A stretch of DNA of 6,276 nucleotides from a candidate division TA06 bacterium SM23_40 (lineage in GTDB: Bacteria > LJUI01 > SM1-40): contig LJUI01000144.1 in the NCBI GenBank assembly GCA_001303705.1, positions 1 through 6,276 of the forward strand. Direction: 5' to 3'. The position numbers were made by a program, and so were the translations under genes. This document shows, piece after piece, positions 1-6,276 of this stretch (positions are counted from its first letter, which is position 1; every line of letters begins with the position of its first letter). The notes below the pieces were generated by a model. The model saw only the letters and a program-made list of their open reading frames with translations, made no database searches and was not told the DNA's origin.

Positions 1-234
1 AGCCCCGGTGCACCTGGTAGTGCGCCAAGTCCAGGGGGTGGACACCGATTTCGCTGACCCGAGCGGTAGAGCTGCTGGGGTTTGTCTATTTTGTGGCTAG
101 TGCCCCGGCAGAGTGGCGAGTCCACGGTCGGCTGACCTGTCACATGACTGGCAGGTATCCGGCTCGCCTTCGCAACTGTGAGAGGAGGTGAGATCAAGAA
201 AGACAAGCGGTGATAAGTCAACCCCGAAATTGGG
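1..234. other. Non-coding stretch: putative IS110 right end plus flanking DNA
   Basis: No gene is recognisable here. One plus-strand frame is open from the window edge (base 2) to a TAG at 98-100; its 32 residues, beginning APVHLVVRQVQGVDTDF, could be the tail of an upstream gene, but I do not recognise it. A short inverted repeat, ACCTG (135-139) and CAGGT (152-156), lies inside. A near-perfect Shine-Dalgarno string, AGGAGGTGA (183-191), has no ATG, GTG or TTG at a usable distance. The part nearest 235 follows the transposase stop codon and should include the right end of the element, which is normally short in the IS110 group. The exact junction cannot be placed because these elements usually lack terminal inverted repeats and target duplications. 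Confidence 0.4.
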
Positions 235-1443
235 CTAATGTGAATCCTCCGCTGCGGCGATGTGAGGGGTATACGGTTGCCTGTTCTTCAGCACAGAGAA
301 GATGACGTGGAGCATTTTGTGAGCGACATGGCTGAGTGCGACGGTGTGATGTTTTCCCCGTGCGCGTTGGCGTTCATACACACCTTTGAAGAGCGGGTCC
401 CGTGCAGTAAAGACGGCACTCTCGGCAGCCTGGATGATGGCCGTGCGCAGATACTTGCTTCCCCGTTTGGACATTCTGGTCTTGCCTGAGGATTCGCCGC
501 TTTCCCGGAGACGGGGATCGATTCCGGCGGCAGCGACAAGTTTTCGGGCTCCTGTCTTCAGTTCAGGATGGAAGACAGGCAGGACTTCCGCCAGGACCGT
601 AGGCGCCCACACCTTGCCCAGTCCGGGGATCGACTGCAAGAGCTTCTGCTCGGCGGGCAGCAACTGTGCAAGTCGCTCGGTCAGTTCTGCGATCTGGTCC
701 AATAGGAGGTTGATGCGCTCCACGATGAACCGGACTTCCAGGGCAAGTGAGTCGGTGTCTCCGGTGAGTGCGAACGATGTCCTGGCAGCCCGTCTGAGAC
801 GCTCGGCATGTGGTCTGCCCATGCGGCCCCGGCTTGCTTCGCGCAGAACACGAGTCAGGCGACGGATGTCAACCTTTGCCAACATCTGGGCGGTGGGAAA
901 TTGGGCAAGGACTTCCCTGCTCGTGGCACCGAAGATATCCGAGAAGTGCTGAGCGTATTCGGGGAAGACCAGGTCGAGGAGGGCGACAAGGCGCTGTTTC
1001 TCAGCCATGGCCGCCTGTGCGCACTCGAAGCGCAGACGCGTCAGGTCGCGCAAATGGCGAATGTTCTCTTCCGGGATCGCGGATACGCTGAGGCTGTCCT
1101 CGCGCAACAGCTGAGCGATCAGGTAGGAATCGACGGCGTCTGTCTTGCTGCCACGGATGGTGACATTTCGCCGTGCTGCGGTCACCATTGGATTGATGAC
1201 GAGCACCTTGTAGCCGAGCTAGGTGAGGTGCTGAAACAGCACCATCCAGTAGTGGCCGGTCGCCTCCATCCCGATGAGGATCCCCGCCGGCGACTGTCCG
1301 GTGGCGGCCAGTTTAGCCGCGAAGCCATTAACGCCTTGGTGGCTATGAGCGAACGAGAAGTTACGGAACACAACTTTGCCCTCTGCATCCAACAAGGTCG
1401 CGTTATGACGACGTTTGGCGATGTCGATCCCCAGCGTCCACAT
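235..1443 (-). pseudogene. IS110-family DEDD transposase, interrupted by an in-frame amber codon
   Basis: The family consists of bridge-RNA-guided recombinases with an N-terminal RuvC-like DEDD domain and a C-terminal Tnp_20 domain carrying a catalytic serine. The gene has 402 codons before its final TAG. Codon 75 (1219-1221) is TAG, between ...LFQHLT and LGYKVLVINP; the frame is the same on both sides, so one base change explains it. The four acidic residues are present in the expected context: D7 (GIDIAK), E60 (GMEATGHYW), D102 and D105 (KTDAVDS). The C-terminal domain shows QSIPGLGKVWAPTVLAE and MSKRGSKYLRTA, with candidate catalytic serines. The amber splits the RuvC site: the first fragment (74 residues) keeps D7 and E60, and the second, openable only at a GTG at 1206 without a clear ribosome-binding site, keeps D102 and D105. 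The ATG at 1443 is chosen because GGAGG lies 7 bases upstream. Inactive unless the codon is read through. Confidence 0.9.
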
Positions 1444-1445
1444 GA

Positions 1446-1480
1446 GCAGACCTCCGTTCGGGCTGAGAGTTGGAGGCTGC
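1446..1480 (-). repeat. Hairpin sequestering the transposase ribosome-binding site
   Basis: This is an inverted repeat with 9 paired bases per arm (GCAG plus CCTCC against GGAGG plus CTGC), one bulged base at 1450 and a 16-base loop. Its 3' arm contains the Shine-Dalgarno of the transposase. Pairing was checked base by base; folding in the cell is inferred. Confidence 0.6.
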
Positions 1481-1632
1481 CCAAGATCGGGGTGACGCCA
1501 GACGGCACGTCCTCGCGGCTAGATCAGGGAACATGGTCCCATCAAGCGGTAAGTGCATCGTGCTGGCGCCGGCGGTCTTTCTAAGGGGACAATGCCCCGG
1601 GGACGAAAAGCCGAACCCCAGCAGCCTCGCCA
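1450..1632 (-). ncRNA. Candidate bridge RNA of the IS110 element
   Basis: IS110-group elements transcribe a structured RNA of roughly 150-250 bases from the non-coding end upstream of the transposase; its internal loops pair with target and donor DNA. The segment has the right position, strand and length. It begins just downstream of a promoter candidate (TTGCTT, 17 bases, TATACT) and contains several inverted repeats: CGCCAGC/GCTGGCG (1628-1634 with 1562-1568), enclosing two GGGG/CCCC hairpins (1585-1598 and 1599-1619); GAT-GGGA/TCCC-ATC (1522-1543); GACGCC/GG-CGTC (1494-1511); and the hairpin at 1446-1480. The first arm may begin slightly before the predicted transcription start, so that stem could be shorter in the RNA. 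Neither the guide loops nor the ends could be assigned with confidence. No convincing protein-coding frame explains the segment. Confidence 0.5.
1451..1455 (-). promoter_or_regulatory. Ribosome-binding site of the transposase, inside a hairpin
   Basis: On the minus strand GGAGG is followed by a 7-base spacer and then the transposase ATG, which fixes the start at 1443. The GGAGG lies in the 3' arm of an RNA hairpin: CCTCC at 1472-1476 (minus sense) pairs with it, and GCAG/CTGC (1477-1480 with 1446-1449) closes the stem around a single bulged base at 1450. A ribosome-binding site held in a stem would keep transposase translation low. Confidence 0.65.
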
Positions 1633-1637
1633 GCCTG

Positions 1638-1666
1638 AGTATAGTCGCCATCGGCGAGCGAAGCAA
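1638..1666 (-). promoter_or_regulatory. Sigma-70-like promoter candidate for the bridge RNA and transposase
   Basis: Reading the minus strand, TTGCTT (1666-1661) is followed by exactly 17 bases and then TATACT (1643-1638). The -10 matches the consensus at 5 of 6 positions and the -35 at 3 of 6. Transcription would start near 1632-1630, giving a leader of about 190 bases before the transposase ATG, in line with IS110-group elements. The same bases read TATAGT on the plus strand, but no matching -35 was seen in that direction. Confidence 0.5.
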
Positions 1667-1701
1667 GTCTTCCGCTAGTCGCAGAACCACACCAACACTG
1701 C

Positions 1702-1736
1702 CTCCTGCCTTCGGCAGGAGTCGGTAGAACCTGCCG
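1702..1736 (+). promoter_or_regulatory. Mutually exclusive hairpins in the leader of the GyrI-like gene
   Basis: CTCCTGCC (1702-1709) pairs perfectly with GGCAGGAG (1713-1720) around a TTC loop, giving an 8-bp stem. The middle arm can instead pair with a downstream copy, as CGGCAGG (1712-1718) with CCTGCCG (1730-1736) around an 11-base loop. The two structures cannot coexist. A third small hairpin, CAGCC (1739-1743) with GGCTG (1749-1753), follows. The arrangement resembles an attenuator, but no T-run follows either stem, so transcription termination is not supported. It could also be target or end structure left from the IS110 insertion. Confidence 0.4.
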
Positions 1737-1770
1737 ATCAGCCATCGAGGCTGTTCGACATATCATACGA

Positions 1771-1776
1771 GGAGGG
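1771..1776 (+). promoter_or_regulatory. Ribosome-binding site of the GyrI-like gene
   Basis: GGAGGG lies 8 bases before the ATG at 1785 but only 2 bases before the in-frame ATG at 1779. The spacing therefore favours 1785 as the true start. Confidence 0.75.
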
Positions 1777-1784
1777 TAATGGCC

Positions 1785-2411
1785 ATGGAAAAGGCCGATC
1801 TGACTAAGAGTCTCAAGGACCTGTATCGAGCGGGCCACGAGATCGAGGAAGTCATCGCCGAAAGAGGCGTTTTCTTCTGCGTGGACGGGCGGGGTGATCC
1901 GGGTGGCGATGTCTTTCAACGTGCGGTCGAGCAACTCAAACAAGTTGCCTATACGGTCAGAGCCCGCCTGAAGAAGGCGGGGAGGCTACAGTTCAGGATA
2001 TCGAAGCTCGAGTGTCGGTGGATGTGTGATCCGGGCGAAACTCCGAGAGAGAAGTGGTTATGGAGAGTACTGGTGCGTGTCCCGGAGGAGGTTACCCAGA
2101 ATGATCTCAGGGAAGCCCGCACAATCCTGCGCGATAAGAAGGGATTGGACGTATCAGCAGTGAAACGGGTCTCCTGGCGGGAAGGGCGCGCACTCCAGGT
2201 GATGCATGTCGGTCCGTACGGCCAGGTCAGTAAAGTCTACGCGGATCTTCGAGCAGAGGCCGAGACACTCGGGTACCGTGTGAAGGGGCCCGGCCACGAA
2301 ATCTACATCAACGACCCGCGCCGAGTGGAGCCAGTCAAGCTGAAGACCATTGTCCGCTTGCCGATCGCCTGGCCCCGTCCGGACTATGCTCGAGGAGGCT
2401 CTCGGCGCTGA
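1785..2411 (+). CDS. GyrI-like small-molecule-binding domain protein
   Basis: This 208-residue protein matches the stand-alone GyrI-like family (SOUL/SBM fold, as in the effector-binding domain of AraC/BmrR regulators). Visible hallmarks are the opening EKADLTKSLKDLYR, VFFCVDGRGDP (about 29-39), a helix with AVEQLKQVAYTVR (47-59), WLWRVLVRVPE (91-101), ALQVMHVGPY (136-145) and a strongly conserved C-terminal stretch including GHEIYINDPRRVEP (170-183). It spans the usual length of the family, with no DNA-binding domain and no signal peptide, so it is cytoplasmic. Family members bind hydrophobic or cationic small molecules, and some hydrolyse cyclopropanoid genotoxins; which applies here is not shown. 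The start is at 1785 from ribosome-binding-site spacing; an alternative ATG at 1779 would add two residues. It lies directly beside the IS110 element, whose insertion may have replaced its original upstream region. Confidence 0.88.
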   Translation: MEKADLTKSLKDLYRAGHEIEEVIAERGVFFCVDGRGDPGGDVFQRAVEQLKQVAYTVRARLKKAGRLQFRISKLECRWMCDPGETPREKWLWRVLVRVPEEVTQNDLREARTILRDKKGLDVSAVKRVSWREGRALQVMHVGPYGQVSKVYADLRAEAETLGYRVKGPGHEIYINDPRRVEPVKLKTIVRLPIAWPRPDYARGGSRR

Positions 2412-5171: not shown

Positions 5172-6276
5172 CTATCGCACTATTACCATTCGCCTCGTTC
5201 CGCTGAAGTCACCAGCCTCGAGACGGCAGAAGTAGACGCCGCTGCTCACCCTGTGGCCCCGTCCGTCACGTCCGTCCCAGGTCATCCGATGGCGCCCTGC
5301 CGGGACCATCCCGGGCTCCAGTCTCCGCACAAGGGCGCCGCGGATGTCATAGATGTTCAATGTGACCTGCGTCGGAGCCAGAAGCGAGTACGTGATCGTG
5401 GTCGTGGAGCGAAAGGGGTTGGGATAGTTCTGGGCGAGGTACTGAGATAGCGGGACGCCGAGATTCTCCTCCTCGCCCGTCACGCGGGTGACATCGGTGA
5501 CGGTGATGTCGGTCTGCGTGGTGTCAGCGAGGGGCGGAAGGCCGTCATCGGTGGCGATGAACGTCACTACATAGAGGCCCGCCTGTTGGTACGTTGGAGT
5601 CCACTCGAAGACACCCGTGACCGAGTCGAGGACAGCTCCCGTCGGTAGGTCGGGAGACGAGAAGGAGATAGTATCGCCGTCGGGATCGGTCGCCATCAGG
5701 GTGAAGGTGAGATACTGATTCTCGGCGACCGTGGTGTCGGCCTGATCGAGCAAGTCAGGTGGACGGTTCACATCGCCCACGGTGATAATGGTCTGTTCGG
5801 TATCGGCGAGGGCAGGGGTGCCCCAATCAGTGGCAATGAAGGTGGTCGGATAGTTGCCCGCCTGGCCGTATGTTGGAGTCCACTCGAAGAGACCCGTGAC
5901 CGAGTCGAGGACAGCTCCCGTCGGTAGGTCGGGAGACGAGAAGGAGATAGTATCGCCGTCGGGATCGGTCGCCACCAGGGTGAAGGTGAGATACTGATTC
6001 TCGGCGACCGTGGTGTCGGCCTGATCGAGCAAGTCAGGCGGTCCGTTCACATCCGTCACGGTGATGGTGGTCTGTTCCGTATCTGCCAGTGCCGGGGGGC
6101 CATTGTCGGTGGCGATGAAGGTAGTCAGGTGGTTACCGGCTTGTGCATAGGTCGGAGTCCACTCGAAGACGCCTGACGCCGAGTTCAGCGTAGCTCCGGC
6201 GGGCAAATCGGGAGATGAGTAGGAGATGCTGTCACCGTCGGGATCGGTCGCCACCAGGGTGAAGGTGAGATACTGG
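5172..6276 (-). CDS. Secreted repeat protein with Ig/cadherin-like units and type IX sorting domain (5' end outside the window)
   Basis: The frame is open to the window edge, so the start, signal peptide and an unknown number of repeats are missing; 367 complete codons are present. Numbering from the first of these, residues 1-78 end a first repeat, 79-171 are a full unit beginning PPDLLDQADTTVAENQYLTF, 172 to about 263 are a second full unit, and about 274-367 are the C-terminal domain. Each unit carries ATDPDGD, a DxDxD-like stretch suggesting calcium binding, and EWTPTYxQAGxYxxTFIATD, the signature of the putative Ig (He_PIG) fold. The end domain has LAQNYPNPF, TLNIYDIRGALVRRL, WDGRDGRG and SGVYFCRLEAG, typical of FlgD-like/type IX secretion sorting domains. 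I infer a secreted or surface-anchored protein; its activity would lie in the missing N-terminal part. It ends with TAG at 5172-5174. Confidence 0.88.
   Translation of the reverse strand, partial: QYLTFTLVATDPDGDSISYSSPDLPAGATLNSASGVFEWTPTYAQAGNHLTTFIATDNGPPALADTEQTTITVTDVNGPPDLLDQADTTVAENQYLTFTLVATDPDGDTISFSSPDLPTGAVLDSVTGLFEWTPTYGQAGNYPTTFIATDWGTPALADTEQTIITVGDVNRPPDLLDQADTTVAENQYLTFTLMATDPDGDTISFSSPDLPTGAVLDSVTGVFEWTPTYQQAGLYVVTFIATDDGLPPLADTTQTDITVTDVTRVTGEEENLGVPLSQYLAQNYPNPFRSTTTITYSLLAPTQVTLNIYDIRGALVRRLEPGMVPAGRHRMTWDGRDGRGHRVSSGVYFCRLEAGDFSGTRRMVIVR
5593..6276 (-). repeat. Tandem 279-bp coding repeat, at least three copies
   Basis: The spacing is constant: GATACTG occurs at 5711, 5990 and 6269, 279 bases (93 codons) apart. 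Bases 5593-5759 and 5872-6038 are identical except at 5612/5891 (C/G) and 5696/5975 (T/C), that is 165 of 167. Outside that block the two units differ much more. The third copy is divergent from about 6151 to 6235 and then matches the second from about 6236 to the window edge. The array continues beyond the window. Confidence 0.9.

What the first reader, a model, noticed from the sequence alone, without database searches (positions are those of the whole stretch)
1450..1666. Candidate bridge RNA with its own promoter upstream of the IS110 transposase
IS110-group elements use a structured RNA from this position to guide recombination. Seen here: a TTGCTT-17-TATACT promoter in the correct direction, a predicted transcript of about 180 bases before the transposase, and at least five inverted repeats that no coding frame explains. 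The RNA of this particular element, from what appears to be an uncultivated lineage, is probably undescribed, and its loops would reveal the target specificity.
Basis: partly seen in the sequence, partly recalled or inferred. Interest (0 to 1): 0.65.

Follow-up and report, generated by a model that had tools for sequence, protein, structure and literature searches.

The report
Bridge RNA of ribosome-site-targeting IS110 element
The segment is a real guide ("bridge") RNA of a small, probably disabled jumping gene, and its relatives show something less expected: many such elements carry RNA guides matching the ribosome-binding sequence in front of genes and insert exactly there, leaving that sequence working.

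Summary
The finding is essentially right. The window (one whole contig of a MAG) holds a 1.57-kb IS110-group element on the minus strand, 203-1771. Its bridge RNA lies at about 1629-1487. A covariance model built from three relatives only hits there with 118.9 bits (E 8e-28). Paired positions covary in 4 of 4 relatives. The donor guides match both element ends, and the right target guide matches the right flank 6/6. The reported promoter is weak (8/12) but keeps position and spacing in all four relatives. A stronger TTGACT-17-TATGAT promoter would form at the circle junction, as known for IS621.

Three corrections: the left end is at 1771, about 100 bp beyond the finding; the transposase has an in-frame TAG at codon 75; and the left target guide does not match its flank. 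This copy is probably decayed.

The main new point comes from relatives. In 49 of 63 distinct insertions the CT core lies 6-17 nt before a divergent gene start (background 6-16%). The joined-site consensus is AAAGGAGG, the Shine-Dalgarno sequence, and the left target guide carries the anti-Shine-Dalgarno (CACCUCCU). IS900 is cited as targeting translation-initiation signals, so the site preference has a precedent. I found no report of the RNA basis or its breadth.

The parts
203..1771 (-). IS110-group element, 1569 bp counted with one CT core; left end at 1771/1770, right end at 203
   Evidence: Ends by homology with clusters whose flanks diverge at CTCGTAT and the invariant TTGAC+13-nt right end; coordinates
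235..1443 (-). IS110 transposase (PF01548 + PF02371), in-frame TAG at 1219-1221 (codon 75)
   Evidence: DEDD and SG positions conserved in the family alignment
203..221 (-). Right end TTGACTTATCACCGCTTGT: left donor plus -35 of the junction promoter
201..202 (.). Right core dinucleotide (CT on minus strand, AG on plus)
1762..1771 (-). Left end CTCGTATGAT: core CT, right donor, and -10 (TATGAT) of the junction promoter TTGACT-17-TATGAT
1638..1666 (-). Internal promoter TTGCTT-17-TATACT, position conserved in four relatives
1487..1629 (-). Bridge RNA core (target-binding and donor-binding loops)
   Evidence: covariance model built without the window: 118.9 bits, E 8.2e-28
1600..1608 (-). Left target guide position (TTTCGTCCC); does not match the left flank TACCCTCCT
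   Evidence: register from alignment A5
1585..1598 (-). Target-loop hairpin GGGG-CAUUGU-CCCC, GAGG/CCUC in relatives
1575..1582 (-). Right target guide AGAAAG plus handshake AC (AC pairs with the donor GT before the core)
   Evidence: 6/6 complementary to right flank CTTTCT
1543..1550 (-). Left donor guide ACCGCTTG, identical to the right-end sequence before the core
1512..1520 (-). Right donor guide AGCCGCGAG; CGAG complementary to CTCG at the left end
1496..1501 (-). CTGGCG, 3' strand of the outer donor-loop stem (pairs with CGCCGG)
   Evidence: covarying pairs 221-292 and 222-291 in A5
1770..1776 (+). Shine-Dalgarno AGGAGGG of the adjacent gene; the core AG lies in it and the sequence from the core onwards stays with the gene
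1785..2411 (+). Gene next to the left end (GyrI-like domain PF06445); listed start 1779, ATG 1785 is better spaced from the Shine-Dalgarno

Best explanation
Segment 1629-1487 (minus strand) is the bridge RNA of an IS110-group element. Its donor loop pairs with the element's own two ends and its target loop pairs with the insertion site; by analogy with IS621 the transposase then recombines the two at a CT dinucleotide. In this element's lineage and in many other IS110-group elements the target loop is an anti-Shine-Dalgarno guide, so the elements insert into ribosome-binding sites. The part of the Shine-Dalgarno from the core AG onwards stays joined to the gene, so the gene keeps its ribosome-binding site. 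Shown here: RNA structure, donor matches, element ends, site preference, and guide-target correlation across elements. Inferred: transcription, recombination, and that the guide causes the preference. The window copy itself is probably inactive (TAG in the transposase, mismatched left target guide).
For: Transposase domains. Homologous left ends in L033, L055, L056 with covarying helices. Covariance model made without the window finds it at E 8e-28. LDG 8/8 and RDG 4/4 in window and close relatives, own-versus-permuted LD match 6.31 against 5.80, 0 of 5000. RTG 6/6 in the window. Multi-copy clusters of 16, 8 and 6 copies diverge at CTCGTAT with anti-Shine-Dalgarno flanks. 49 of 63 distinct sites have a start codon 6-17 nt from the core with an ORF of at least 50 codons, background 16% and 6.5%. 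Consensus AAAGGAGG. Own left target found in own left end 7.53/9 against 6.58 permuted, 0 of 5000. Empty site predicted from L066: 671 plasmid records hold at least 80% of it in one place, listed best rows full length and 100% identical.
Against: The window's left target guide (TTTCGTCCC) does not match its flank (TACCCTCCT). Folding energy of the segment alone is not unusual. No Rfam family matches. No expression data. Only four close relatives with a left end were found, so covariation counts are small and the sequences are related. Not every group member targets a Shine-Dalgarno: L036 sits in another sequence, L045 has no gene start there, and several ends were not assigned. The left-end motif and TTGAC were used to pick ends in most elements, so the junction-promoter count is partly circular.
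Confidence: 0.9

Rival explanations
1. The segment is only the 5' untranslated leader of the transposase mRNA with regulatory hairpins (as sRNAs and leader structure regulate ISPpu9), not a guide RNA.
For: It lies directly upstream of the transposase; ISPpu9 has such regulation (PMC8450116, abstract); overlapping alternative helices A-X and X-B could be a switch.
Against: Loops match both donor ends and the right flank, and across the family guides track their own targets and donors; the order left target guide, hairpin, right target guide, donor loop is that of IS621.
Confidence: 0.05
2. Insertion next to Shine-Dalgarno sequences is a survivorship effect: only insertions that spare genes are kept, and the RNA is not the cause.
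For: Phage and plasmid contigs are gene-dense; the insertions leave the gene's Shine-Dalgarno intact.
Against: The left target guide contains the same anti-Shine-Dalgarno letters, and elements with other sites carry other guides (L056 AGACCCT, L036 GGGGACA, L055 TCTCCT).
Confidence: 0.1
3. The window copy uses a different, non-Shine-Dalgarno target, and its present position is accidental.
For: Its left target guide TTTCGTCCC is not anti-Shine-Dalgarno-like.
Against: The core lies in AGGAGGG before a gene start and the right target guide fits 6/6.
Confidence: 0.15

Closest known systems
IS621 bridge RNA system (Durrant et al. 2024, PMC11208160; Hiraizumi et al. 2024, PMC11208158)
   Same: RNA in the long left end upstream of a DEDD transposase; target loop then donor loop; LTG, RTG, LDG, RDG and handshake positions; CT core; [quoted passage not shown]
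   Different: IS621 targets REP elements. This element has a longer left end (about 327 nt), a longer transposase (about 400 aa) and an additional internal promoter-like site.
ISEc21 seekRNA (IS110 family; Siddiquee et al. 2024, PMC11187229)
   Same: Upstream non-coding region encodes an RNA with matches to both target strands; circular intermediate with junction promoter; no target duplication.
   Different: ISEc21 targets a conserved spot inside IS3-family transposase genes, not ribosome-binding sites.
IS900 of Mycobacterium avium subsp. paratuberculosis (IS110 family; Doran et al. 1997, doi 10.1099/00221287-143-2-547, cited in PMC8141618)
   Same: Titled as targeting translation initiation signals; an ORF (hed) spans the element on the opposite strand. 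Close relatives here (L033, L055, L056) also keep a whole-length open antisense frame.
   Different: From memory of the older literature, IS900 separates the Shine-Dalgarno from the gene; here the Shine-Dalgarno from the core on stays with the gene. No RNA guide was described at that time. IS900 itself was not analysed here.

Membership tests
IS110 family (IS110 group) | DEDD RuvC-like domain plus Transposase_20 domain with SG motif | tested here: met
   PF01548 and PF02371; D, E, D, D and SG conserved. The window copy is interrupted by TAG.
IS110 family (IS110 group) | Long non-coding end upstream of the transposase, short right end, no target duplication | tested here: met
   Left end about 327 nt, right end about 30 nt; empty site of relative L066 shows no duplication
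IS110 bridge RNA | Conserved structure with two loop modules upstream of the transposase | tested here: met
IS110 bridge RNA | Donor loop pairs with both element ends | tested here: met
   LDG ACCGCTTG 8/8; RDG CGAG to CTCG
IS110 bridge RNA | Target loop pairs with both flanks | tested here: inconclusive
   Window: right guide 6/6, left guide fails. Relatives: left guide matches own target beyond all 5000 permutations, right guide matches in many.
IS110 bridge RNA | RNA is transcribed and bound by the transposase | not testable with these tools
   No RNA or protein data
IS110 bridge RNA | Promoter restored at the circle junction | tested here: met
   TTGACT-17-TATGAT by sequence; 41 of 41 family junctions at least 10/12, with partly circular choice of ends. 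Activity not tested.
IS1111 group | RNA in the right end, long sub-terminal inverted repeats | tested here: not met
   RNA lies in the left end; right end short

The most novel reading that the evidence does not exclude
A broad part of the IS110 group uses bridge RNAs whose left target guide is an anti-Shine-Dalgarno sequence, the same letters as the 3' end of 16S rRNA. These elements home to ribosome-binding sites in general rather than to one locus, and are arranged so that the gene keeps its Shine-Dalgarno.
Probability: 0.8. Interest if true: 0.75.

Novelty: new variant of a known kind. Interest (0 to 1): 0.58.

Why it matters
Bridge RNAs are programmable recombination guides. A natural class that aims at the most common short signal in bacterial genomes, without destroying it, would explain how many IS110 elements spread with little harm, give a mechanism for the reported IS900 preference, and provide many natural guide-target pairs for learning pairing rules. 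It also predicts insertions between promoters and genes at ribosome-binding sites, including in resistance clusters such as aadE-sat4-aphA3.

Tried and rejected
Rfam scan: no match to any family. Folding of the single sequence: not significant. Close relatives in viral contigs by the window protein or the right-end pattern: none. Relatives within the genome's own class: no other genome held. Early attempts to place the left end at GACTATACT or at CTCGCCGATGG by matching guides within the window alone were abandoned once L055, L056 and the multi-copy clusters fixed it at CTCGTAT. Empty site for L079 in phages: none. Outward promoter at the left end: no excess over shuffles. Internal promoter as a family-wide feature: only a slight excess (mean 8.4 against 7.8), so it is claimed only for the close group. 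One genome search gave nothing new. Single origin of Shine-Dalgarno targeting on the tree: not supported, the label needs 12-14 changes and unassigned elements blur it.

Full report
What was checked. The window is the whole of contig C112 of a 2.88-Mb MAG, the only genome held of its class. On the minus strand it carries an IS110 transposase (PF01548 and PF02371) at 1443-235. An in-frame TAG at 1219-1221 (codon 75) splits it. The element occurs once in the assembly.

The TTGCTT-17-TATACT site is at 1666-1638. It scores 8/12 and falls below the scan threshold. The segment folds no better than shuffled sequence (z -0.26). Inverted repeats alone therefore prove nothing, and comparison was needed.

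Relatives. A scan of 84,980 genomes gave three elements with 65-73% identical transposase and one with 41%. Searches of Desulfobacterota-side groups gave two more, L055 and L056. L033, L055 and L056 have left ends that align with the window. The promoter hexamers and their 17-nt spacing stay in register in all four (TTGCTT/TATACT, TTGCCT/CACAAT, TTGCCT/CATAAT twice). A structure of 18 pairs is formed in 98.6% of cells, with 6 pairs changed on both sides (shuffled mean 2.5, 1 of 500 shuffles as high) and no slid version near it. A covariance model built from the three relatives without the window hits the window at 1629-1487 with 118.9 bits, E 8e-28; weak hits in the left ends of six more distant elements (E 0.005-0.04) are the next best.

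Ends. In clusters of 16, 8 and 6 near-identical elements at different places, homology in most pairs stops at CTCGTAT, give or take target bases shared by chance; a few ungapped comparisons stop earlier because of indels inside the left end. The right end is TTGAC plus 13-14 nt followed by CT in nearly all elements where it could be read. Applied to the window this gives an element from 1771 to 203 with CT cores at 1771-1770 and 202-201. As a direct test, the flanks of relative L066 were joined with one core. The predicted 222-nt empty site is held at 80% or more of its length by 671 plasmid records, and the listed best rows cover all of it at 100% identity. L036 sits in a repeat whose uninterrupted form is on the same contig; its core is CA, its left target guide carries GGGGACA and its right target guide ATTGTG, matching GGGGACACAAT.

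Guides. With the IS621 layout (PMC11208158) the window reads: left target guide position 1608-1600, hairpin 1598-1585, right target guide AGAAAG 1582-1577, handshake AC 1576-1575, left donor guide ACCGCTTG 1550-1543, hairpin 1540-1527, right donor guide ending CGAG at 1512, handshake GA. The left donor guide is identical to the right end before the core. CGAG pairs with CTCG of the left end. AGAAAG matches the right flank CTTTCT. The left target guide TTTCGTCCC does not match the left flank TACCCTCCT. Together with the TAG this suggests a decayed copy; it could also mean that the guide changed after insertion. Across the family the left target nonamer occurs in the element's own left end at 7.53/9 on average against 6.58 when targets are permuted (0 of 5000), and the left donor octamer at 6.31 against 5.80 (0 of 5000).

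Promoters. The circle junction would form TTGACT-17-TATGAT in the window. Over 41 distinct family junctions all score at least 10/12, but TTGAC and the TAT of the -10 were used to find the ends, so only the spacing and remaining letters are independent. Junction promoters are known for IS621 (PMC11208160). The internal promoter is an addition in the close group. It would allow the integrated copy to make the RNA; this is inference.

Target rule. On the gene strand the window reads ATACG-AGGAGGG-TAATGGCCATG, so the core AG lies in the Shine-Dalgarno of the GyrI-like gene. The same holds for L055, L056, L037, L038, L044, L046, L059, L065 and L066. A viral-contig scan gave 80 more elements. Of 63 distinct assigned sites, 49 have a start codon 6-17 nt from the core that opens at least 50 codons, against 16% and 6.5% at other positions of the same flanks. 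Several of the remaining 14 look like Shine-Dalgarno sites with shorter frames or a mis-chosen motif. The consensus of joined sites is AAAGGAGG. The left target guides contain CACCTCCT-like letters. The elements thus carry an anti-Shine-Dalgarno guide, and after insertion the gene keeps the Shine-Dalgarno from the core onward. On a transposase tree such elements are spread over deep branches with exceptions. The sample is phages, plasmids and a few MAGs, not a census.

Literature. IS621 and ISEc21 bridge or seek RNAs define the mechanism (PMC11208160, PMC11208158, PMC11187229). IS900, an IS110-family element, is cited as targeting translation initiation signals (Doran et al. 1997, cited in PMC8141618). 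Searches for an IS110 Shine-Dalgarno guide found nothing, but most subscription journals and ISfinder were not available. Novelty is therefore claimed only for the RNA basis and breadth, with that caution.

Verdict. The element is an ordinary member of a known kind in its mechanics; the target rule revealed by its relatives is the part of interest.

Noticed in passing
L033 332-1522; L034 33-986; L055 and L056 transposase genes; window 235-1443: The transposase genes of four close relatives contain no TTA, CTA or TCA codon (about 170 Leu and 90 Ser codons in all), while neighbouring genes use them at roughly 15%. The antisense frame is therefore open across nearly the whole element in the complete copies (509-531 codons), reminiscent of hed in IS900; no Pfam match. 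The window copy has four such codons.
   Followed up: partly
window 1615-1610, 1573-1565, 1501-1496: The 3' strand of the target-loop stem is complementary both to its 5' strand and to a segment after the donor loop. Both pairings hold in 4 of 4 close relatives with covariation and exclude each other; similar overlap in 18 of 30 family members.
   Followed up: partly
window 1670-1760 (minus strand): Up to three hairpins between the left end and the internal promoter are conserved in position but not in sequence in L033, L055 and L056; they may be terminators or protective structures.
   Followed up: no
window 1219-1221: In-frame TAG at codon 75 of the transposase; relatives are open here. Could be decay or an assembly error.
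   Followed up: partly
L066 637-2267: An IS110 element of Enterococcus faecium sits in the Shine-Dalgarno of sat4 inside the aadE-sat4-aphA3 cluster; the uninterrupted site is in hundreds of plasmids.
   Followed up: yes
L036 1966-1980 and 3470-3520: This Omnitrophota relative has a CA core and targets a repeated GGGGACACAATACC sequence, with both target guides changed to match: natural reprogramming.
   Followed up: partly
family left target guides, e.g. L079, L072: The guide CACCUCCU is also the 3' end of 16S rRNA, so the 16S gene itself should be a perfect target; no such insertion was seen among the sites read here.
   Followed up: no
window 182-190: A second Shine-Dalgarno-like GAGGAGGTGA lies about 10 bp outside the right end.
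   Followed up: no
window 5172-6275: Surface protein fragment with near-identical Ig-like repeats (He_PIG, Big_9) and a C-terminal sorting or FlgD-like domain.
   Followed up: no
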